From an uncultured Pseudomonadota bacterium (GTDB lineage Bacteria > Myxococcota > UBA796): a stretch of DNA of 11,444 nucleotides. Made by a program: the position numbers and the translations under genes. The notes below the pieces were generated by a model. It saw only the letters and a list, made by a program, of their open reading frames with translations. It did no database searches and was not told the origin of the DNA. Shown here piece after piece: positions 1 to 11,444 of the stretch; the stretch's first letter is position 1, and each line of letters starts with the position of its first letter. Location of the stretch: positions 1 through 11,444 of the forward strand of contig CAJWHX010000070.1 in NCBI GenBank assembly GCA_913040875.1. Direction: 5' to 3'.

Positions 1-1653
1 CCAACAAGATCGCATACTGTCTCAGCTCAAGGTGGAATTACCTGTGCCATTGCGAGCGATGATCCCGATGATGATTGGAGATGGCATATGTACGATACAG
101 TTAAAGGCTCTGACTATATAGGTGATCAAGATGCGATCGAATATATGTGTGAAACAGGTCCTGAAGCAGTATTTGAATTGGAGCATATGGGCTTACCCTT
201 CTCTCGTACTGACGAAGGTAGAATTTACCAGCGTCCATTTGGTGGTCAATCTAAAAATTTTGGTGAGGGTGGACAAGCAGCAAGAACCTGTGCTGCAGCA
301 GATAGAACTGGCCACGCTCTTCTCCATACTTTATACCAGAACAATGTTAAAAATGAGACAGTCTTCTTCAATGAATGGTATGCAGTGGATCTAGTTAAAA
401 ATGATGATAATGCAGTTGTAGGAGTTATTGCGATAGATATTGAAACTGGAGAAACTGTATTTGTTAAGTCAAGTGCAACTGTTCTTGCTACTGGTGGTGC
501 CGGTAGGATTTATGCCTCCACGACCAATGCTCATATATGTACTGGTGACGGAATTGGTATGACGCTAAGAGCAGGTTTTCCTGTACAAGATATGGAAATG
601 TGGCAATTTCATCCAACAGGTATTTACGGTGCAGGCACACTTGTAACAGAAGGTTGTAGGGGAGAAGGGGGTTATCTAATAAATAAAGATGGAGAGCGCT
701 TCATGGAAAGATATGCCCCAAACGTTAAGGATTTAGCAGGACGCGATGTTGTTGCTCGCTCTATGGTTCTGGAGATATTGGAGGGTAGAGGTTGCGGTGA
801 GGGTGGCGATCATGTTCGATTAAAATTAGATCATCTTGGAGAGGAAGTACTACAGAGTCGCCTACCGGGAATATGTGAGCTTTCAAGAACCTTTGCTCAT
901 GTAGATCCAGTTAAAGAACCTATTCCTGTTGTACCCACATGTCACTATATGATGGGAGGAATACCAACAAATGTTGATGGACAAGCATTAACGCTTGATA
1001 GTGAGGGAAATACTCAGGTTATAAGTGGCCTTTATGCTTGTGGTGAAGCGGCATGTGTTTCTGTGCATGGGGCCAATCGTCTAGGTGGTAATTCTTTGCT
1101 AGACTTAGTAGTTTTTGGAAGAGCCTCAGGTTTATTTATTGAAAAGTCACTTGGTGAGGGTATTAAACTAACTGATCCAACAGATGCAAACATAAGCAAG
1201 GCAATGGAAAGGCTTAACATTATCAACAATGGCTCCAAAGACGGTGAATCTGCTGATGTCTTGCGTGCAGAGTTACAGAAGGTCATGCAAAATTATTTTG
1301 GGGTATTCCGCAGGGGAGATTATATGCAAGAAGGCATTGAGCAACTCAAATCACTCAGAGCGCGAATAGAAAATGTTTGTTTAGATGATACAAGTAATGT
1401 TTACAACACTGCACGAATTGAAGCACTCGAACTGCACAACTTATTAGAGGTTGCAGAGGCTACTGCCATTACTGCAGAATGGAGAAAAGAAAGCCGAGGT
1501 GCTCATGCTCGCGAAGATTTTTCTGAACGAGATGATAAAAATTGGCTTTGTCATTCTATGTTTTTCCCAAAAGAAAAAAGAGTGAAGAAGAGGGAAGTAA
1601 ATTTTTCACCAAAGAAAATGGACCATTTTGAACCAAAGGTCCGGGTTTATTAA
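1..1653 (+). CDS. sdhA: Succinate dehydrogenase flavoprotein subunit (5'-truncated)
   Basis: Catalytic flavoprotein of complex II: oxidises succinate to fumarate and passes electrons through FAD to SdhB at the inner membrane. The reading frame is open from base 1; about 40 N-terminal residues, including the first Rossmann glycines, lie off the left edge, so the in-frame ATG at 88 is internal. The first visible residues are [12 protein letters not shown], whose His (bases 13-15) is the covalent FAD attachment site. Active-site residues match the E. coli set: His in FHPTG (codon 204 of the window), Arg in AGRDVVAR (248), His in TCHYMMGG (315) and Arg in GANRLGGNS (360). The C-terminus ends in EPKVRVY, like the E. 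coli PPKIRTY ending. The 550 visible residues fit a normal protein of about 590. Followed 22 bases later by sdhB; sdhCD would be expected upstream. Its close resemblance to E. coli SdhA points to Gammaproteobacteria. Confidence 0.97.
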
Positions 1654-1675
1654 TTAATTAAGGATATTTTTTAGT

Positions 1676-2380
1676 ATGTTAAAAGTAAGTATTTATCGCT
1701 TTAATCCAGAACAGGACGAAGCCCCTTATATGCAAGATTATGATTTTGATACCCAAGGAAAGGACCTCATGGTGCTTGACGTTCTGGGTATGTTAAAAAG
1801 TAGAGATCCATCAATTTCATATCGTAGATCTTGTCGTGAGGGTGTTTGTGGATCTGATGGCATGAATATCAACGGAAAAAACGGTCTCGGCTGTATTACC
1901 CCTCTTTCAGAATGTGTGAAAGGAAATAAGCTTGTTATAAGGCCTTTACCCGGTCTACCAGTCATCAGGGATCTAGTAATCGATATGAGTCAATTTTATG
2001 CCCAGTACAAGAAGATACAACCATATCTTGTCAATGATGATCCGGCACCAGGTATTGAAAGACTTCAAACTCCAGAGGATCGTGCAAAACTTGATGGCCT
2101 CTACGAGTGTATTCTTTGCGCATGTTGTTCGACAAGTTGCCCTTCATTTTGGTGGAATCCAGATAAATTCATTGGTCCTGCTGGACTTTTGCAGGCCTAT
2201 CGTTTCTTAGCGGATACAAGAGATAATGATACTGAGAAAAGGCTATCTAACCTACAGGACCCATTTAGTGTCTTTCGATGTCATGGAATTCAAAACTGTG
2301 TTGCTGTGTGTCCTAAAGGTCTAAATCCAACGAGGGCAATTGGGCATATAAGAAATATGTTAATGAAAAAGGCTGCCTAG
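1676..2380 (+). CDS. sdhB: Succinate dehydrogenase iron-sulfur subunit
   Basis: Electron-transfer subunit of complex II, linking the SdhA flavin to quinone at the SdhCD membrane anchor. It has 234 residues against 238 in E. coli. All cluster ligands are visible. The [2Fe-2S] site has Cys53, Cys58, Asp61 and Cys73 (motif SCREGVCGSDG). The [4Fe-4S] site has Cys145, Cys148, Cys151 and Cys212. The [3Fe-4S] site has Cys155, Cys202 and Cys208. The quinone-side motif PSFWWNPDKFIGPAGLL is intact. The start is supported by AAGGA at 1660-1664, 11 bases before the ATG, and by alignment of the N-terminus (KVSIYRFNP) with E. coli. It is cotranscribed with sdhA and probably with sucA, 51 bases downstream. 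By hand count, 9 of its 15 Arg codons are AGA/AGG, against none of 15 in sucB, which marks it as part of the left-hand compositional block. Confidence 0.98.
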   Translation: MLKVSIYRFNPEQDEAPYMQDYDFDTQGKDLMVLDVLGMLKSRDPSISYRRSCREGVCGSDGMNINGKNGLGCITPLSECVKGNKLVIRPLPGLPVIRDLVIDMSQFYAQYKKIQPYLVNDDPAPGIERLQTPEDRAKLDGLYECILCACCSTSCPSFWWNPDKFIGPAGLLQAYRFLADTRDNDTEKRLSNLQDPFSVFRCHGIQNCVAVCPKGLNPTRAIGHIRNMLMKKAA

Positions 2381-2431
2381 GCTGGTTGCTATGAAAAAAT
2401 AGAACTGTGTATTAAACACAAGGATAAATAG

Positions 2432-5374
2432 ATGCCTAAAAGCATCATGCAAGAGTTTACAGAAAGCTCCCATCTATCTGGTGGTAATGCGGCATATATA
2501 GAAGATTTATATGATGCTTACCTTCATGATCCTAGTAGTGTTGCCGATCAATGGCGTAATTTCTTTGACACATTACCCCGGCCTAATGGAAAAATTGGTC
2601 CAGATACTTCTCATGTGACTGTCATGGCTCACTTTGAGAAACTAGGTAGACGCAGATCAAGACCAGTAGTCATTCCTGGTTCTGGTGGCGAAAATATTGA
2701 ACATGAACGAAAACAGGTCAAAGTTGCCCAGCTCATAATCTCTCATAGAAATCGTGGCCACCAAAAAGCAAAATTAGATCCACTAGGTCTTTGGTCCAGG
2801 GATAGAGCACCAGATCTTGAGCTATCCTTCCATGGTTTGACACCAGCAGATTTGGATACAACTTTTCAATCTGGAATGCTGTATTTCGGTCCAGAAGAAT
2901 CGACTCTAAGAGATATCATTGCTGGACTAGAAGAAACCTACTGCGGTCACGTTGGAGTTGAATGCGGTCATGTAATAGATTTAGCAGAAAAACGGTGGCT
3001 TCAGCAGCGTTTCGAGAGTGCTAAATCTAAGCCTAATTATGATGACGAAATGCGAAAATATGTTTTACAGAGATTAACGGCTGCAGAGGGTCTCGAGAAA
3101 CACTTAGATTCAAAATATCCGGGTACAAAGCGCTTTGGCCTGGAGGGCAGTGAATCAATGATCCCGATGTTAGACGGAATAATACAACGAGCTGGTGGTT
3201 ATGGAGCTAAAGAAGTCGTTCTTACGATGGCTCATAGAGGTCGTCTTAATGTTTTAGTAAATGTTCTTGGAAAGAATCCATCAGAATTATTTGCAGAATT
3301 TGAAGGTAAAAGACATGTTGATACTTCAGGAGATGTAAAATATCACCAAGGATTTTCTTCAGATGTAGTTACACCAGGAGGCAAGGTACATCTAGCTTTA
3401 ATGTTTAATCCATCTCACCTAGAAATTGCAGCACCAGTTGCAGAAGGATCTGCAAGAGCACGACAGGATAGACGCGAGGATTCAAAAGGAGAGGTAGTCT
3501 TCCCAATTGTAGTTCATGGCGACGCGGCTTTTGCTGGTCAGGGTGTTGTTATGGAAACATTTCAAATGTCCCAACTCAGAGGATACAAGACTGGTGGTAC
3601 AGTTCACGTTGTCATTAATAATCAGGTAGGATTTACTACTAGTGTTCAAGAAGATGCAAGATCAACGGAATATTGTACTGATATTGCAAAAATGGTCCAA
3701 GCCCCAATTATTCATGTTAATGCTGATGACCCAGATGCCGTAATGTTTGTCACAAATCTCGCAATGGATTATCGATATCAGTTCAAAAAAGATATCGTAA
3801 TCGACCTTATTTGTTATCGGAGACGTGGCCATAACGAAACTGACGAGCCCTCTGCAACTCAACCTCTGATGTATAAGGTAATTAAAAACTTAAAAACTAC
3901 GCGTGCTATTTATTCAGATCAGTTAGTCAAAGAGGGTGTAGTCTCTCAAGAAGAAGCAGATGCGATGCTCAAGGATTATAGGGGAAAATTAGATCGAGGT
4001 GAGAATGTTGTTAATAGTCTGGTTTCCGAGCCAGATATAGAGCTTTTTGTGAACTGGAATCCCTATTTAAACCAAGATTGGGACACAATAGTAGACACTA
4101 CTTGCCCTATGAAAAAGATACGTGATCTAGCCAAAATAATCACAAGAAATCCTGATGGTGTGGTGATGCAAAGACAGGTTGGTAAGATATACGAAGATCG
4201 CGAAAAAATGGCTCGTGGAGCCTTACCTCTTAATTGGGGAATGGCAGAATTATTAGCTTATGCGACTTTACTAGATGAAGGATACCCTATAAGAATGACA
4301 GGTCAAGATATAGCTAGAGGGACATTTTCTCATCGTCATGCAGTCATTCATAACCAAAAAGATGGCTCAAGTTATATACCTTTAAAAGAGATACCAGAGA
4401 AATCTTCAAATTTTGAAATTTACGATTCTTTCTTATCAGAAGAAGCAGTGCTTGGTTTTGAATATGGTTACGCCTCCACATCTCCTAAGGGTTTGGTTAT
4501 ATGGGAAGCACAATTTGGTGATTTTGCAAACGGAGCTCAGGTGGTTATAGATCAATTCATTACAAGCGGCGAACATAAATGGGGGCGTATGTGTGGTCTC
4601 ATTATGCTGTTACCCCATGGATATGAAGGTCAGGGCCCAGAGCATTCCTCTGCTCGATTGGAAAGATTCTTACAGCTCTGTGCAGAGGACAATGTTGTGG
4701 TTGCCAATGTGACCACCCCTGCGAACTTCTTTCACTTAATGCGTCGGCAGATGCTAAGAACTGTCCGCAAGCCTCTTGTGGTGATGTCTCCGAAGTCTTT
4801 GTTGCGTCATCCGAAGTGTATTTCGACGTTGAATGACTTGTCGACAGGATCCTTTCAGAAGATGTTGATGGATCCAATGTTGTCATCGGATGCCTTTGAG
4901 CCAAAAGCAGTAGAGCACGTTGTGTTTTGCTCTGGGAAGATTTATTATGACTTGCTCGAGCATCGTGAAATGATTGATCGATATCAAGATGCTACGGAAG
5001 AATCAGATCGAGAGAAGGTTCGAACATATTTGAAAAAGTTTGCTTCATTTGCAATATTAAAGCTGTTGGAATCGGGGGCGACCATAGATACCAAACGTAT
5101 TGTAGTGACCAGAATTGAACAGTTGTATCCATTTCCCGAAGCGGAGATTTTGAAGCATCTCAAACGGTTTGATAAGCCTGACCTTCATTGGTGTCAAGAA
5201 GAGCCACAGAATATGGGGGCTTGGCCAATGGTGGATGAATGGTTCAGCGATGTTTTGGATGCACGAATCATCCATTACATTGGTCGTAAACGTTCAGCGA
5301 GTCCCGCTACAGGGTCTCCGAAAATTCACAAGGCAGAGCAGGCAGCTATTGTAGAAGGTGTCTATTCTCTGTAA
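2432..5374 (+). CDS. sucA: 2-oxoglutarate dehydrogenase E1 component (apparent two-lineage mosaic)
   Basis: Thiamine-diphosphate-dependent decarboxylase of the 2-oxoglutarate dehydrogenase complex; it transfers the succinyl group to lipoyl-SucB. The 980 residues are longer than E. coli (933). Order: E1o N-terminal segment (about 12-48, NAAYIEDLYDAYLHDP), His268 in AHRGRLNVLVN, ThDP/Mg site GDAAFAGQGVVME at 363 through INNQ near 399, RRGHNETDEPS near 465-474, transketolase pyrimidine-type domain from about 600 (GTFSHRHAVIHNQ, EAQFGDFANGAQ), then the C-terminal domain (VTRIEQLYPFP, WCQEEPQNMGAW, GRKRSASPATG). The start follows AAGGA at 2420-2424, 7 bases upstream. Two oddities: base and codon use change between about 4560 and 4790 (residues 710-786) with no frameshift, and residues 846-891 form a stretch roughly 37 residues longer than in E. 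coli. The function is certain; whether this intact frame exists in one organism is not. sucB starts 39 bases later. Confidence 0.95.
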   Translation: MPKSIMQEFTESSHLSGGNAAYIEDLYDAYLHDPSSVADQWRNFFDTLPRPNGKIGPDTSHVTVMAHFEKLGRRRSRPVVIPGSGGENIEHERKQVKVAQLIISHRNRGHQKAKLDPLGLWSRDRAPDLELSFHGLTPADLDTTFQSGMLYFGPEESTLRDIIAGLEETYCGHVGVECGHVIDLAEKRWLQQRFESAKSKPNYDDEMRKYVLQRLTAAEGLEKHLDSKYPGTKRFGLEGSESMIPMLDGIIQRAGGYGAKEVVLTMAHRGRLNVLVNVLGKNPSELFAEFEGKRHVDTSGDVKYHQGFSSDVVTPGGKVHLALMFNPSHLEIAAPVAEGSARARQDRREDSKGEVVFPIVVHGDAAFAGQGVVMETFQMSQLRGYKTGGTVHVVINNQVGFTTSVQEDARSTEYCTDIAKMVQAPIIHVNADDPDAVMFVTNLAMDYRYQFKKDIVIDLICYRRRGHNETDEPSATQPLMYKVIKNLKTTRAIYSDQLVKEGVVSQEEADAMLKDYRGKLDRGENVVNSLVSEPDIELFVNWNPYLNQDWDTIVDTTCPMKKIRDLAKIITRNPDGVVMQRQVGKIYEDREKMARGALPLNWGMAELLAYATLLDEGYPIRMTGQDIARGTFSHRHAVIHNQKDGSSYIPLKEIPEKSSNFEIYDSFLSEEAVLGFEYGYASTSPKGLVIWEAQFGDFANGAQVVIDQFITSGEHKWGRMCGLIMLLPHGYEGQGPEHSSARLERFLQLCAEDNVVVANVTTPANFFHLMRRQMLRTVRKPLVVMSPKSLLRHPKCISTLNDLSTGSFQKMLMDPMLSSDAFEPKAVEHVVFCSGKIYYDLLEHREMIDRYQDATEESDREKVRTYLKKFASFAILKLLESGATIDTKRIVVTRIEQLYPFPEAEILKHLKRFDKPDLHWCQEEPQNMGAWPMVDEWFSDVLDARIIHYIGRKRSASPATGSPKIHKAEQAAIVEGVYSL
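4560..4790. other. Compositional and codon-usage junction inside sucA
   Basis: Left of here the DNA is AT-rich (hand counts of G+C: 17/60 at 3241-3300, 23/60 at 2221-2280); right of it G+C is higher (27/60 at 4801-4860, 29/60 at 6181-6240). Arg codons AGA/AGG make up 9 of 15 in sdhB, but only 2 of the last 15 in sucA (after 4740) and 0 of 15 in sucB. TTG and AAG also become the favoured Leu and Lys codons after about 4780. The zone spans the nearly invariant E1o stretch around HGYEGQGPEHSSARLERF, exactly where homologous sequences of different species would recombine or be mis-joined. The frame is unbroken. The exact crossover point cannot be fixed because the zone is conserved. Confidence 0.75.
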
Positions 5375-5413: not shown

Positions 5414-6496
5414 ATGTCTAAGATTGTTGATGTTGTCGTTCCCACAGTTGGGGAGTCTGTCACTGAAATTTTTGAGGTTCGCATTCTCAAAGGGGTCGGT
5501 GAGTACGTTAAAGAAGGTGACGTTATATTGGAAGGCGATTCTGATAAAGCCAGTATTGAGATTCCATCTCCCATCACAGGTCAAGTGAGCGAAATCTTGG
5601 TTGAAGAAGGCGCAGATTTTCCGATTGGGGATGTCATTGCTAAGATTGAAGAGAAGGCCATTCCAGCGGAGGCGGAGAGTGCTCCGGTACCTGTCGCCCC
5701 TCATGAGTCATCTGGTGTAGCAGAATCTGTTGAAATTGCAGCTCCAAAGGCGGCGCCTGTAGTGGAGCCAGAACCACCGAAGACAGTGACACCAGTCGGT
5801 GCGGAAACCCGCGTCAAGATGACTCCACTTCGTCGTACGATTGCACGTCGATTGGTAGAGGCTCAGCAGACTGCAGCGATGCTAACGACGTTTAATGAAG
5901 CTGATATGACCGCGATCTTTGATTTGCGTAAAAAGTATCAAGATCGATTTGTTGAAAAACACGGTACAAAACTTGGGTTCATGTCCTTTTTTGTGAAGGC
6001 CATCGTAGATTCTTTGCAGGTCTTTCCGGCCGTCAATGCTGAGATCGACGGTGACTATATTGTGTATAAGAATTTCTATAACATCGGTGTTGCGGTTTCA
6101 GGACCAAAAGGCTTGATGGTGCCGGTGGTTCGGAATGCAGACCAGTTATCGTTTGCAGAAGTAGAGTTGGAAATCAAGCGCCTTGCTGGTTTGGCCCGCA
6201 ACAATAAACTGAAGCCCCAGCATTTTCAAGATGGAACGTTCACCGTATCCAATGGTGGTGTCTTTGGTTCACTGCTCTCGACTCCAATTTTGAATCCACC
6301 ACAAGTTGGAATCTTAGGGATGCACAGCATTCAGAAGCGTCCCGTAAACGTCAATGGGAATGTAGAAATCCGTCCAATGATGTACTTGGCTCTCTCCTAT
6401 GATCACCGTATTATTGACGGTAAAGAGGCTGTATCCTTCTTGGTTCGCGTCAAGAACTTGGTCGAGAATCCAGAGCAACTATTATTTGATGTCTAA
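5414..6496 (+). CDS. sucB: 2-oxoglutarate dehydrogenase E2, dihydrolipoyl succinyltransferase, lacking an evident subunit-binding domain
   Basis: Core acyltransferase of the 2-oxoglutarate dehydrogenase complex; its swinging lipoyl arm carries the succinyl group from SucA to CoA. It has 360 residues against 405 in E. coli. The lipoyl domain spans about 1-78 with lipoyl-Lys45 in the hairpin GDSDKASIE. An Ala/Pro/Glu-rich linker covers about 80-132. The catalytic domain runs from about 133 ([16 protein letters not shown]) to the end, with His331 and Asp335 in [19 protein letters not shown] is typical of the succinyl type rather than the acetyl type. No peripheral-subunit-binding domain (a SPAVRR...G.GRVTK-type segment) can be seen between linker and core. 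The start is fixed by AAAGAGG at 5402-5408, 5 bases before the ATG. It sits 39 bases after sucA, which fixes the oxoglutarate assignment. Codon use is that of the right-hand block (0 of 15 Arg codons are AGA/AGG). No sucCD or lpd follows. Confidence 0.94.
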
Positions 6497-6655: not shown

Positions 6656-8146
6656 ATGAAACATTTAAAAGCCTGTGTTTGGGTGGGGCCATCAAAGAAT
6701 CAGATCCGATCATCTGCCAAACCTGTACAGTCTGACCTCGAAACTTTGGTGAAGCAAGGTGTCAATATTGTCTTTCAAGTTGAAGACATTGGTGTGTGGT
6801 CATTTTTTACGACCGTCGCAGCTGCAGTTGAGTTTGCACATACCGTACTGGAGCAGAATGAAACGGTACAGCATTCAGTCCTCATCACGGCTGGAGACCT
6901 TCAGTATGAAGAGGGAAAATGGGTGGGGTATGCCTTAGAGCGCGTGAAGACTTTGCTGCGATTTTTGGAGCCTAGACAGATTTGGTTTACTGAAACACTC
7001 TTTCATTTGATTGATCTCGATGAAGTGCTTTGGGAAGAGGTGGGTCTCATTGCAACAGATCTCTCATCGGTTCGTTGTTTCCGAATGCTGATACAGGGTC
7101 AGGCTTTTGTTCCTACGGCATTAAAAAGAGCCATTCGTGAACAGAAGGTCATTGTATGTCAAAAGCATAGACCGATGGGTCCTGTGGAGAAGGGCAAGCA
7201 TGTTGTGTTTGTTGGATATCCGTACGATCGAGAATTGCGTTCTCAAGTGGCGCGGGTGGGTAGTGTTATTCCGAACGATAGATTGTGGCTTGTATTGCCA
7301 AAAATTGGGGTGAAAACACGAAAGGCTTGGACCGATTTCGGTCGCCATTTAATCATTTCTGAACCAGATGTTTTTCTGAGTGATATCGTACGCACAGACC
7401 TAACATTGATGGACATGGGGTCTAATGGCACACTGTTTTTAGATCCCGTGAAACTATCCAGTGGTGAGGTGTCGATATTTGGAGTGGCTTTACCTCAGGT
7501 GCCAATGGCTCGCATCATTGATGGGTATACTTTGGATTTATTCAGCAATGGAGAATGGGGCTATGGAGAAGTAGACACGGCGGTGGTACGGGTCGCGGTC
7601 AATTTGGAAGGCAAATTTATCATCGCTTTTAAACCGGAATGTCGATTGAACAGTCGAGATATGGAAATTGGAAAATCGTATCCGCTCGGCAATGGAGCTC
7701 GAGTCACAATCGGTCGATTGACGTATCGATATATTGCTGATGTTGGAAAGCCTTATTGCGGATTATTTTTGGGGGAATCGACCAAACGACTCGCTCTGTC
7801 GGTTGGATCTAGAGTTGAACTGGGCCGTCAACCGGTTGGGAATGGTTTTGCCTTGCCCGATAGAGGAGGGGCGGACCGAATCCAATGGGGGCAGTCTGTA
7901 CAAGCTGAGAATGCCCAAAGGAACAACCTAACCTTGGATCGTGCCTTAACAGGTCGACAACACCTCTCACTTTCAGTTCAATCAGTCGGTAGATTTATCA
8001 TAGCGCCATTACACGACAAACTGCCCACGTTTATCCTACCACCATCATCTCAACGATTGAAACGCATATCCGGTGAACTCTTGATCAAAGATGAAGGGTT
8101 GATCGTAGTCGGTACCAATGTAATTCGAGTGGCAAAAACTCAATAG
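6656..8146 (+). CDS. Uncharacterised protein with a degenerate nucleotide-cyclase-like N-terminus and FHA-like C-terminus
   Basis: I do not recognise the family as a whole. Residues about 50-150 resemble the second half of a class III nucleotide cyclase domain: a helix AAAVEFAHTVLEQ, a strand HSVLITAGDLQ where cyclases have an RIGLHTGE-type strand, then WVGYALERVKTLLRFLEPRQIWFTETLFHLI, matching the usual GxAVNRAARL...GQ..LSE segment. The metal-binding Asp residues are not visible, so catalysis is unlikely. Further on are FHA-like pieces: DMGSNGTLFLDP at 253-264 followed by SGEVSIFG, ARVTIGRLTYRYI around 348-360, and near the C-terminus ELGRQP...NNLTLDRALTGRQHLSL (GRQH at 433-436, where FHA domains have SRxH), ending GLIVVGTNVIRV. 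No signal peptide or membrane segment was seen. The start follows GGAGAG (6645-6650), 5 bases upstream. It is convergent with the next gene. A cytoplasmic phosphothreonine-binding or scaffold role is inference only. Confidence 0.6.
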   Translation: MKHLKACVWVGPSKNQIRSSAKPVQSDLETLVKQGVNIVFQVEDIGVWSFFTTVAAAVEFAHTVLEQNETVQHSVLITAGDLQYEEGKWVGYALERVKTLLRFLEPRQIWFTETLFHLIDLDEVLWEEVGLIATDLSSVRCFRMLIQGQAFVPTALKRAIREQKVIVCQKHRPMGPVEKGKHVVFVGYPYDRELRSQVARVGSVIPNDRLWLVLPKIGVKTRKAWTDFGRHLIISEPDVFLSDIVRTDLTLMDMGSNGTLFLDPVKLSSGEVSIFGVALPQVPMARIIDGYTLDLFSNGEWGYGEVDTAVVRVAVNLEGKFIIAFKPECRLNSRDMEIGKSYPLGNGARVTIGRLTYRYIADVGKPYCGLFLGESTKRLALSVGSRVELGRQPVGNGFALPDRGGADRIQWGQSVQAENAQRNNLTLDRALTGRQHLSLSVQSVGRFIIAPLHDKLPTFILPPSSQRLKRISGELLIKDEGLIVVGTNVIRVAKTQ

Positions 8147-8203: not shown

Positions 8204-9187
8204 TCAGTGGAAAGAGACCATGTTTGTTGGTCGCTTTGCCAATGAGAATGTGATGTCTTTGCGATAGCCAGTTGCTTCACCGCCCAACTGATAAGGAATG
8301 GTGTCTTCAAACTCGACATGAATTTTGTCAACATAATAATCGAGTAGACCAGGGTGCCGAAGTTCACCGTTCCAAGCACTGTAGATATGTTGTCCAATTT
8401 GGAGAGGACTCATTGTGACTACACGAAGTTGGAAGCGCCCATCACGTTTTGTGGCGAAAGGAAACATTTTCATTTTGTAACCATAGTAGGGAGTGCTGGC
8501 ACACGTCACGGTTGAAACCATACCTTCAAATAAAACGCCTCCTGTTGGAATCGGTTCGCCAATTTCTGCACCAGTTGGCCCAATGGCGAATGCCGGTCGG
8601 CCCAGATTGGTAATACGGACAGAGACCTTTGGTGTTTTGATGTGATTGGGCAGTGTATGAAGATATCCAGCCCATAGATATCCTGTCATTCCCTTCATGA
8701 GGGGTTTATACCACTTCGTTTTAGAGGAGCGTTTGACTTTGTTGTAATCATTTAAAATGGCAGCATCTATGCCCAATCCAGCAAATGGGAATAGGGTATC
8801 TTCTGCTTCAATCATGTTGGCTTTGATGATACTGTGGCTGTGAGGGTGTTCCCAACGCTTCAAATCATCACTTGGTTTAGATGAATTGAGCCAATAGGCC
8901 AACGCATTACCAGTACCCAGACGTAAAACACCAACAGTTGGAGGCGTGCCTTCTGAAAACTCGTGTAGTCCGTTTATGACGTCGACGATCGTACCGTCTC
9001 CGCCGCCAGCAAAGATGGTTTCGCTCCCTCTTTCGACACACTCTTGAAGCACTTCTCGTGAATGGAGCAGGCTTTCGGTGAGGTGTAGACGATCTGAAGG
9101 CAGTTGTTGTTGGAGCTGATTGATCAATGCTGGTGTTACACGACCAGCGTTTCGATTGAGTACCACATCATAGTTTAATTCAGACAT
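8204..9187 (-). CDS. Diacylglycerol/sphingosine kinase-family lipid kinase (YegS/LCB5-type)
   Basis: Predicted ATP-dependent lipid kinase of the DAGK catalytic-domain superfamily (COG1597 type). With the chosen start it has 327 residues, normal for the family. N-terminal nucleotide-binding half: VVLNRNAGRV (8-17), the catalytic glycine-rich loop FAGGGDGTIVDVINGL (59-74), and LRLGTGNALAYWL further on. GLGIDAAILNDYNK begins the second, beta-sandwich half that carries the lipid site. The open frame extends to an ATG at 9259, but the ATG at 9187 is preferred: GGAG (9197-9194) lies 6 bases before it, the conserved domain starts right there, and the likely promoter covers the upstream Met codons. 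The substrate (diacylglycerol, ceramide, or another lipid alcohol) cannot be told from sequence. It ends 57 bases from the convergent FHA-like gene and lies downstream of alaS on the same strand. Confidence 0.88.
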   Translation of the reverse strand: MSELNYDVVLNRNAGRVTPALINQLQQQLPSDRLHLTESLLHSREVLQECVERGSETIFAGGGDGTIVDVINGLHEFSEGTPPTVGVLRLGTGNALAYWLNSSKPSDDLKRWEHPHSHSIIKANMIEAEDTLFPFAGLGIDAAILNDYNKVKRSSKTKWYKPLMKGMTGYLWAGYLHTLPNHIKTPKVSVRITNLGRPAFAIGPTGAEIGEPIPTGGVLFEGMVSTVTCASTPYYGYKMKMFPFATKRDGRFQLRVVTMSPLQIGQHIYSAWNGELRHPGLLDYYVDKIHVEFEDTIPYQLGGEATGYRKDITFSLAKRPTNMVSFH

Positions 9188-9193
9188 TTCTTT

Positions 9194-9197
9194 CTCC
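9194..9197 (-). promoter_or_regulatory. Shine-Dalgarno GGAG deciding the lipid-kinase start
   Basis: On the minus strand ATGGAGAAAGAAATG reads into the gene. GGAG sits 6 bases before the second ATG (9187) and overlaps the first ATG (9199-9197), so initiation at 9187 is favoured. Confidence 0.6.
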
Positions 9198-9203
9198 ATT
9201 ATA

Positions 9204-9219
9204 TATTGACATGTCAATA
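9204..9219. promoter_or_regulatory. Perfect 16-bp palindrome, candidate operator
   Basis: TATTGACATGTCAATA is identical to its reverse complement. It lies between the predicted transcription start (about 9224) and the Shine-Dalgarno sequence of the lipid-kinase gene. A dimeric helix-turn-helix repressor bound here would block early transcription. No regulator gene is present in the window, so the cognate protein is unknown. Confidence 0.5.
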
Positions 9220-9230
9220 CATTTAAGTTC

Positions 9231-9259
9231 ATTATATCTGTAGGGATACAGTATAGCAA
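9231..9259 (-). promoter_or_regulatory. Candidate sigma70-type promoter of the lipid-kinase gene
   Basis: On the minus strand, TTGCTA (9259-9254, 4 of 6 to the -35 consensus) is separated by 17 bases from TATAAT (9236-9231, 6 of 6 to the -10 consensus). Transcription would start near 9224 and give a leader of about 37 bases. The surroundings are AT-rich, so a chance match is possible, but spacing and position relative to the gene are ideal. Confidence 0.55.
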
Positions 9260-9403: not shown

Positions 9404-11444
9404 TTAGTGTGATGTTAACACCTCAGGAACGGCAGCGAGAGCGTTTGGAATTCCGGAAGGGTTTTTACCACCGGCTTGTGCCATGTCTGGTCGGCCACCC
9501 CCACCCCCTCCAATGTGTTTTGCCAGAGCGCGAACCATATTGCCAGCGTGTACTGTTTTGCCAGCAAGATCTTTGGTTGCAGCGACAAGAATTTTGGCGC
9601 CTTGGGTTCCAGAGGCTAAGACAACGACTCCACTACCAAGTTTATTCCGTAATCGGTCGGCCTCTTCACGCATCGCATTCATGTCTCCATTGAATTCAGC
9701 AGCAATCACTTTGATTCCTCCGAAATCTTGTACAGAGTCCATTAAATCTCCAGCTTGAAGTTGTGCCATTTCTTTACGTAGGTCAGCCAACTCCTTTTCC
9801 AATTTACGTTTGTCATCGATGAGCTTTTCCACTTGTTGTGGTACATCGCTCACTCGCACACGGAGCTGATTGGTCACTTCAGTTAATGTATCAGAACGTT
9901 CTTGATACCATTCAAAAGCTTTCGTGGAGGTAAGTGCCTCAATACGACGAACTCCGGCAGAGATTCCCGCTTCAGAGAGAATATGAAATAGGGCAATTTC
10001 CCCTGTTTGTTCAACGTGGGTGCCCCCGCAGAGCTCCACAGAAAAGTTGGGCACACACACCACTCTAACTTCATCTCCATATTTTTCTCCGAAGAGGGCC
10101 ATTGCCCCTTGTTCTTTGGCTTCATTCATAGAACATACTCGAACATTTAAGCTGCTGTTGGCTTCAATCTCTGTTTGTACAAGTCGCTGGATTTCATTGA
10201 TCTCTGTTGGAGAAACGGATTTGTGGTGTGCAAAATCAAATCGTAGGCGTTCTGGGGTAACCAAAGAGCCCTTTTGGGTGACATGGTTTCCGAGTACCTT
10301 TCTCAATGCTGCGTGAAGTAAGTGAGTAGCAGTATGGTTTCGGCGTGAGAGAAGTCTTGGACCAACAGCGATACTTGCGAGGACCTTTTGACCAACGGTG
10401 AGCTCAGATGCCGGAGAATCAATTTGATGCTCAACCACGTCTGGTGTTGGCTTTTGAGTGTCTAGGACTACTATTTCCGTATCGCCAACCCATAGAGATC
10501 CAGTGTCTCCAGCCTGACCACCACTTTCACCATAAAAGGGGGTTCGATCCAGTACGACAGAGCCCGCTGAAGTTAACGTCTGGACTGCCGTTCCATTTTT
10601 GTCAAATAGGGCTACGATGCTGGCCTCGTGACTTGTTTCTGTATAGCCGGTAAACTCTGTTTTAGATTTGACTTCTGCTATTGGAGAGACCTCATGTCCA
10701 GCGTCTCCGGAGCCTTTCCAGTTGGCTCTTCCCATAGCTCTTTGTTCAGCCATCTTTGCATTGTACCCATCGACATCGATTTCAATGTTTCGTTCACTGG
10801 CAATCAATTGAGTAAGATCGAGTGGGAAACCAAAGGTGTCGTGCAACTGAAATCCAATGTCGCCGGGGAGCAATCCACCATTCGAACAGTGGGTTTCAAA
10901 AGCCTCTTCTAGGATTTGCAGTCCTCGTTCAAGTGTTTCTCGGAATCTAGATTCTTCTGTGTCGATAACTTCTAAGACGAAGGACTTCTTTTCTACAATG
11001 ACGGGGTACGCTGAGCCCATTTCTTCCATGACAAGTTCTGCGCATCCAGAGAGGAAGTTTTCAGTGAGGCCGAGTTTTACACCAAAGCGAATGGCTCGTC
11101 TTGCAATGCGCCGAAGAACATATCCACGTCCTTCATTGGACGGCATGATTCCATCTGCAATCAAAAAGGTTACAGCTCGAATATGATCGGCAATTACCTG
11201 TAATGCTACATCGGTATCCTTAGAGTTGCCATAGGTGGTTCCACTCAGTTTTGCACACTGTTGAATGATGGTTTGAAATATACTCGTATCGTAGTTGTTG
11301 TAGACACCTTGTTTAATGGCAACGAGTCTTTCTAGTCCCATGCCTGTATCGACAGAAGGTCTAGGAAGTGGATGCATCACTCCATCCGATGTACGATTGT
11401 ATTGCATGAATACCAGGTTCCAAATTTCGACGTAGCGATCTGTT
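9404..11444 (-). CDS. alaS: Alanyl-tRNA synthetase (5'-truncated at right edge)
   Basis: Charges tRNA-Ala with alanine and edits mischarged Ser and Gly. The frame stays open to the window edge: beyond the Met codon at 11407 it continues upstream as TDRYVEIWNLVF, the normal AlaRS context, so that Met is internal. About 679 residues are visible; roughly 200, holding class II motifs 1 and 2, are missing. Visible in order: VDTGMGLERL (motif 3), TFLIADGIMPSNEGRGYVLRR, the editing-domain entry YGESGGQAGDTGS, Zn/editing motifs HTATHLLH (near 10320-10340) and CGGTH (10016-10030), a coiled-coil linker (about 9740-9890), and the C-terminal DHHA1-type C-Ala domain with six glycines in a row before RPDMAQAGGKNPSG. 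No key residue is missing. It lies 216 bases upstream of the lipid-kinase gene on the same strand. Codon use fits the right-hand block. Confidence 0.97.
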   Translation of the reverse strand, partial: TDRYVEIWNLVFMQYNRTSDGVMHPLPRPSVDTGMGLERLVAIKQGVYNNYDTSIFQTIIQQCAKLSGTTYGNSKDTDVALQVIADHIRAVTFLIADGIMPSNEGRGYVLRRIARRAIRFGVKLGLTENFLSGCAELVMEEMGSAYPVIVEKKSFVLEVIDTEESRFRETLERGLQILEEAFETHCSNGGLLPGDIGFQLHDTFGFPLDLTQLIASERNIEIDVDGYNAKMAEQRAMGRANWKGSGDAGHEVSPIAEVKSKTEFTGYTETSHEASIVALFDKNGTAVQTLTSAGSVVLDRTPFYGESGGQAGDTGSLWVGDTEIVVLDTQKPTPDVVEHQIDSPASELTVGQKVLASIAVGPRLLSRRNHTATHLLHAALRKVLGNHVTQKGSLVTPERLRFDFAHHKSVSPTEINEIQRLVQTEIEANSSLNVRVCSMNEAKEQGAMALFGEKYGDEVRVVCVPNFSVELCGGTHVEQTGEIALFHILSEAGISAGVRRIEALTSTKAFEWYQERSDTLTEVTNQLRVRVSDVPQQVEKLIDDKRKLEKELADLRKEMAQLQAGDLMDSVQDFGGIKVIAAEFNGDMNAMREEADRLRNKLGSGVVVLASGTQGAKILVAATKDLAGKTVHAGNMVRALAKHIGGGGGGRPDMAQAGGKNPSGIPNALAAVPEVLTSH

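What the first reader, a model, noticed from the sequence alone, without database searches (positions are those of the whole stretch)
4560..4790. In-frame junction of two genomic backgrounds inside sucA
Base composition and codon choice switch within one open reading frame. AGA/AGG is 9 of 15 Arg codons in sdhB, 2 of the last 15 in sucA, and 0 of 15 in sucB; AAG and TTG rise after about 4780. The protein also changes flavour. Up to about residue 715 it reads like a gammaproteobacterial E1o, while NVVVANVTTPANFFHLMRRQ and what follows departs from the gammaproteobacterial pattern (typically CVPSTPAQVYHMLRRQ). The switch lies over the most conserved nucleotide stretch of the gene. Either two organisms were joined by assembly, amplification or read chimerism, or homologous recombination made a mosaic sucA and linked sdhAB to a foreign downstream region.
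Basis: partly seen in the sequence, partly recalled or inferred. Interest (0 to 1): 0.72.

Follow-up and report, generated by a model that had tools for sequence, protein, structure and literature searches.

The report
Two-genome contig; relocated E3-binding domain
This DNA piece joins a gammaproteobacterium to an unrelated bacterium inside one enzyme gene, most likely an assembly error, but the second bacterium appears to belong to a lineage that moved a docking domain of a central metabolic enzyme complex from one subunit to another.

Summary
In detail: sucA (2432-5374) is a head-to-tail fusion of two unrelated sucA genes. Residues 1-740 are 95% identical to a Porticoccus-like SucA (P0001), which then falls to 38%. 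Residues 749-980 are 85% identical to another lineage (P0121), which is 45% over 1-740. Trees of the two parts disagree. The join lies at residues 725-749 (nt 4604-4678), identical in both parents. Window 1-4696 is collinear at 86.6% with a Porticoccus-family genome; after that only 240 bases of sucB match, at 67%.

I judge it a contig chimera (assembly or amplification), not recombination; reads could not be inspected.

The downstream parent has an unusual 2-oxoglutarate dehydrogenase. The chimera has a PSBD on neither subunit, which argues for artefact. The relocation is the part worth keeping.

The parts
1..1653 (+). sdhA, 5' end missing; gammaproteobacterial parent
   Evidence: 96% aa identity to L093, collinear; Pfam FAD_binding_2 and Succ_DH_flav_C
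1676..2380 (+). sdhB; gammaproteobacterial parent
   Evidence: 99% aa identity to L093
2432..5374 (+). sucA reading frame, chimeric, 980 aa
2432..4603 (+). sucA residues 1-724, gammaproteobacterial parent
   Evidence: 95% identity to P0001 over 1-740; sister to P0001, support 100
4604..4678 (+). junction zone, residues 725-749, identical in P0001 and P0121; by DNA the crossover is most likely at about 4670-4690
4679..5374 (+). sucA residues 750-980, second parent (P0121 lineage)
   Evidence: 85% identity to P0121 over 749-980; inside the PSBD-E1o clade, support 98
5414..6496 (+). sucB (E2o), 360 aa, second parent: lipoyl and catalytic domains, no peripheral subunit-binding domain
6656..8146 (+). 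uncharacterised protein with a marginal FHA match, downstream of the join
   Evidence: FHA 19.2 bits against a cut-off of 20.7; no match in three gamma relatives
8204..9259 (-). diacylglycerol-kinase-family gene, downstream of the join
   Evidence: DAGK_cat; no match in three gamma relatives
9404..11443 (-). alaS, 5' end missing, downstream of the join
   Evidence: tRNA-synt_2c; main matches 44-49% to three gamma relatives

Best explanation
The window is a two-parent contig. Bases 1 to about 4670 come from a Porticoccus-like gammaproteobacterium. From about 4670-4690 on they come from an unrelated uncultured bacterium whose next-nearest named E1o relatives are mostly Myxococcota MAGs. The two were joined where both sucA genes encode the same 25 amino acids, most likely when an assembler passed from one genome to the other through a short shared word, or through a chimeric amplified molecule (inferred). 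The frame stays open because the two genes are in register there (shown). The hybrid enzyme is probably not a natural product: relatives of the second parent carry an internal E3-binding domain in E1o and none in E2o, and the hybrid has none in either (domain content shown, function inferred).
For: Identity switch 95 to 38% against P0001 and 45 to 85% against P0121. Discordant trees, supports 100 and 98. 4.7 kb collinear with L093 ending at 4696; the same ending in L094 (4696) and L095 (4693). Codon and trinucleotide change. Ordinary sdhA-sdhB-sucA-sucB order continues in L093 with its own sucB, 43% identical to the window's. E1o and E2o of the second lineage share contigs by length in 6 cases. 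No E3_binding domain in window SucA or SucB.
Against: The longest exact word shared in 4560-4790 with L093 is 21 bases, short for a modern assembler unless the true parent is closer. The fused frame is intact. SucB's exact protein is on 7 contigs and it is unknown whether any other spans the join. The window's own SucA was not listed, for a reason I could not establish.
Confidence: 0.9

Rival explanations
1. Real homologous recombination or transfer: a natural mosaic sucA that ties gammaproteobacterial sdhAB to a foreign sucA-C/sucB block in a living cell.
For: In-frame join at a highly conserved stretch; intact frame.
Against: Parents only about 45% identical in the first 740 residues. One breakpoint and no return to the gamma background in 6.7 kb: alaS 44-49%, other genes unmatched in three gamma relatives (empty answers being weak). 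The hybrid pairs a PSBD-less E2o with an E1o that lacks the insert. No close match on both sides among the 240 listed proteins (each list is the best 120 of about 8000).
Confidence: 0.06
2. One genome with a fast-evolving SucA C-terminus and local codon change, no second organism.
For: A composition change by itself could have local causes.
Against: The C-part is not merely divergent: it is 85% identical to a specific other lineage and nests in its clade, and SucB is 95% identical to P0242 and 84% to P0256, which shares a contig length with P0122.
Confidence: 0.01
3. About the downstream lineage: the E1o insert is only a PSBD-like decoration, and E3 is recruited in some other way.
For: No binding data. 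Moderate model confidence in the insert (block pLDDT 66-77). Some helix-1 residues of the solved PSBD differ (alignment).
Against: E3_binding found in 12 of 12 E1o; full-length match to PSBDs including 1ebd and 2eq7; presence mirrors absence from E2o in 14 of 14 length-matched pairs.
Confidence: 0.2

Closest known systems
Chimeric metagenome contigs joined at conserved genes (recalled; only a search listing seen)
   Same: Single switch of lineage at a conserved coding stretch on a short contig
   Different: Reads not available, so the shared word and depth step are not shown
Canonical prokaryotic 2-oxoglutarate dehydrogenase (E1o, and E2o with PSBD; PMC9974300, passages)
   Same: Same E1o domains; E2o lipoyl and catalytic domains; a PSBD present in the complex
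   Different: In the downstream lineage the PSBD is inside E1o and absent from E2o
Eukaryotic OGDHC with the MRPS36 adaptor (PMC9974300, passages)
   Same: E2o without a PSBD
   Different: There a separate small protein is proposed as E3 adaptor; here a PSBD is inserted in E1o
Actinobacterial E1/E2 two-in-one OdhA (PMC10415282, passages)
   Same: An E2-type domain is carried on the E1o polypeptide
   Different: There it is the succinyl transferase domain (PF00198 in listed hits such as P0172); here only the PSBD, inserted internally, with a separate E2o kept

Membership tests
Two-genome contig chimera | The two sides group with different lineages | tested here: met
Two-genome contig chimera | Composition changes at the join | tested here: met
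Two-genome contig chimera | Exact shared DNA word of both parents at the join | tested here: inconclusive
   25 shared residues; only gamma relatives' DNA was available
Two-genome contig chimera | Depth step or split reads at the join | not testable with these tools
   no reads held
Prokaryotic E2o (SucB) | Lipoyl domain and acyltransferase catalytic domain | tested here: met
   31 of 31 relatives
Prokaryotic E2o (SucB) | PSBD between lipoyl and catalytic domains | tested here: not met
   absent in the window SucB and in 31 of 31 relatives up to E 0.1
E1o (SucA), P0121 lineage | E1_dh, Transket_pyr and OxoGdeHyase_C domains | tested here: met
   12 of 12
PSBD (PF02817) | Sequence match over the cut-off | tested here: met
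   P0121 51.6 and P0122 47.8 bits against 23.7; match at E 0.001 or better in 12 of 12
PSBD (PF02817) | Binds E3 (Lpd) | not testable with these tools
   needs a binding assay

The most novel reading that the evidence does not exclude
In an uncultured bacterial lineage (the downstream parent), the peripheral subunit-binding domain has moved from E2o to an internal loop of E1o, so that E3 is tethered to E1o and the E2o arm carries only the lipoyl domain. This would be a bacterial way to recruit E3 without an E2 PSBD, distinct from the eukaryotic MRPS36 adaptor and from the actinobacterial E1-E2 fusion.
Probability: 0.72. Interest if true: 0.6.

Novelty: new variant of a known kind. Interest (0 to 1): 0.4.

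Why it matters
The junction is a caution: a full-length, well-annotated hybrid enzyme can arise from two organisms on one short contig and would mislead trees, transfer surveys and binning. The downstream parent matters more. [quoted passage not shown] A bacterial lineage with a PSBD-less E2o and the domain re-sited in E1o would be a natural experiment on where E3 must be anchored. The 'new variant' rating refers to this relocation; the mosaic sucA itself is most likely not a real feature.

Tried and rejected
DNA of the second parent: viral-contig scans with A1 and A4 found 0 relatives (34 and 124 pattern stretches). In 398 genomes sampled from G002's phylum the listed matches to P0122 reached at most 48% identity and ended near residue 650, before the insert (the list is cut), so the lineage was not placed; Myxococcota is only a name on some next-nearest hits (Alphaproteobacteria appears too). 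Plasmid records gave matches below 80% identity.

Rejected: fast evolution of one gene (trees). Rejected: a join before residue 715. Not resolved: assembly against amplification chimerism. A fold search of the model was not run; the E1o relation was plain from sequence. The 50 rows of the trees were chosen by hand from the 240 proteins listed plus the window. P0272 (265 aa, catalytic part only, no PF02817) was left out of the 31 E2o as incomplete; P0328 lacks PF02817 outside the lineage; P0349 carries PF02817 but was missed by my 70-190 residue score.

Full report
WHAT THE WINDOW HOLDS. Seven genes: sdhA (no 5' end), sdhB, sucA, sucB, a protein with a marginal FHA match, a diacylglycerol-kinase-family gene on the other strand, and alaS on the other strand (no 5' end). 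No own genome is held. SucB is listed as the window's own protein, on 7 contigs with a longest of 11444 bases, the window's length, so the window is probably one whole short contig.

AGA/AGG falls from 48 of 94 Arg codons before nt 4678 to 20 of 120 after. GC3 is 0.27-0.30 in the upstream genes and 0.39-0.46 in the downstream ones. A trinucleotide change-point scan peaks at 4560 with a gain of 227, against a maximum of 134 in 200 block shuffles scanned at a coarser step. Synonymous codon distance to the gamma relative L093 is 2.23 for the upstream genes and 6.04 for the downstream genes (all).

TWO PARENTS. Against P0001 (945 aa; its neighbours in the list bear Porticoccus labels) the window SucA is 95% identical over residues 1-740 and 38% over 741-980. 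A search with residues 749-980 found another family, P0121-P0132 (1003-1045 aa). P0121 is 85% identical over 749-980 and 45% over 1-740. None of the 240 proteins listed is close on both sides (each list is the best 120 of about 8000 scored). With the same 50 rows, residues 1-724 put the window as sister to P0001 (support 100), while residues 725-980 put it inside the P0121-P0132 clade (support 98), next to P0121 (support 91) (quick method, SH-aLRT only, rows chosen by hand). The window's own SucA was not listed, though its SucB was; I could not establish why.

WHERE THEY JOIN. Residues 725-749 are identical in P0001 and P0121; 724 still follows P0001 only and 750 P0121 only. Two further gamma relatives have the window's Cys-Ala-Glu at 750-752, so the zone may reach nt 4687. 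In DNA the 60-base blocks match L093 at 52, 52 and 51 of 60 up to 4651, then at 40 and 35 of 60; the first 18 bases of the 4652 block still match exactly. blastn against stretches of three genomes from G002's family ends at 4696, 4696 and 4693 (86.6, 76.8 and 71.9% identity); after that only about 240 bases of sucB match, at 67-68%. Upstream, sdhA is 96%, sdhB 99% and SucA 1-749 95% identical to L093, whose own sucB follows its sucA and is 43% identical to the window's. Downstream, the main alaS matches in three gamma relatives are 44-49%, and the DAGK and FHA-like proteins have no match there (empty answers are weak evidence).

ARTEFACT OR RECOMBINATION. A single breakpoint, placed where the two genes agree, between parents about 45% identical, with no return to gamma DNA, is what an assembly or amplification chimera looks like. 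A further argument comes from domains. The second parent's E1o relatives carry an E3-binding domain (PF02817) inside the Transket_pyr region in 12 of 12; its E2o relatives lack it in 31 of 31 up to E 0.1. The fused SucA takes the insert-bearing region from the gamma parent, so neither subunit in this window has an E3-binding domain. A cell living on this complex would need E3 docking from elsewhere. This is an inference, and without reads the question is not closed.

THE RELOCATED DOMAIN. The insert in P0121 spans about residues 645-695, where the E. coli SucA chain of 2jgd has four residues (chain positions 646-649). It matches 28 distinct solved sequences, including 1ebd chain C and 2eq7 chain C, the latter a 2-oxoglutarate dehydrogenase E2. 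An AlphaFold model of P0121 from a 54-row alignment (mean pLDDT 82.7) has two helices there, 658-667 and 685-690, at moderate confidence (block pLDDT 66-77), with a stretch below 50 at 648-651. The E1o inserts resemble the PSBDs of other E2o proteins (median local score 108, against 29 for the best stretch of the 31 PSBD-less E2o), which suggests but does not prove an E2o origin. E1o and E2o rows with an identical longest-contig length form 14 pairs: 6 are E1o with and E2o without the domain, 8 the reverse, none mixed; at 40 offset lengths there were 0 or 1 coincidences each. Six of the 12 PSBD-bearing E1o have no such partner in the list. Equal length is a proxy for the same contig and was not checked by sequence. 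Outside the lineage one further E2o, P0328 (57%), lacks PF02817.

LITERATURE. [quoted passage not shown] PMC10415282 (passages) describes the actinobacterial two-in-one enzyme. The listings of searches (10, 2, 2, 1 and 0 papers) showed no title or abstract start reporting a PSBD inside E1o; most subscription papers are not in that library.

VERDICT. The two-genome junction is plain in the sequence and very probably not real in nature. The downstream lineage's domain relocation is the finding of interest.

Noticed in passing
window 5414-6496; P0121-P0132; P0241-P0271: PSBD missing from E2o and present as an internal insert in E1o of the downstream parent's lineage.
   Followed up: yes
P0328: An E2o outside this lineage (57% identity) also lacks PF02817, with only a short remnant like the start of a PSBD; a possible independent loss or a damaged sequence.
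   Followed up: no
window about 4976-5110: The C-terminal half of the second-lineage E1o has a further insert of about 39 residues relative to the E. coli SucA chain of 2jgd (P0121 888-926), kept in the window.
   Followed up: no
L054: A contig titled Verrucomicrobiaceae bacterium RYN_599 carries a SucA 59% identical to the window's in its best segment, ranked among gammaproteobacterial loci; possibly a mislabelled or contaminated MAG.
   Followed up: no
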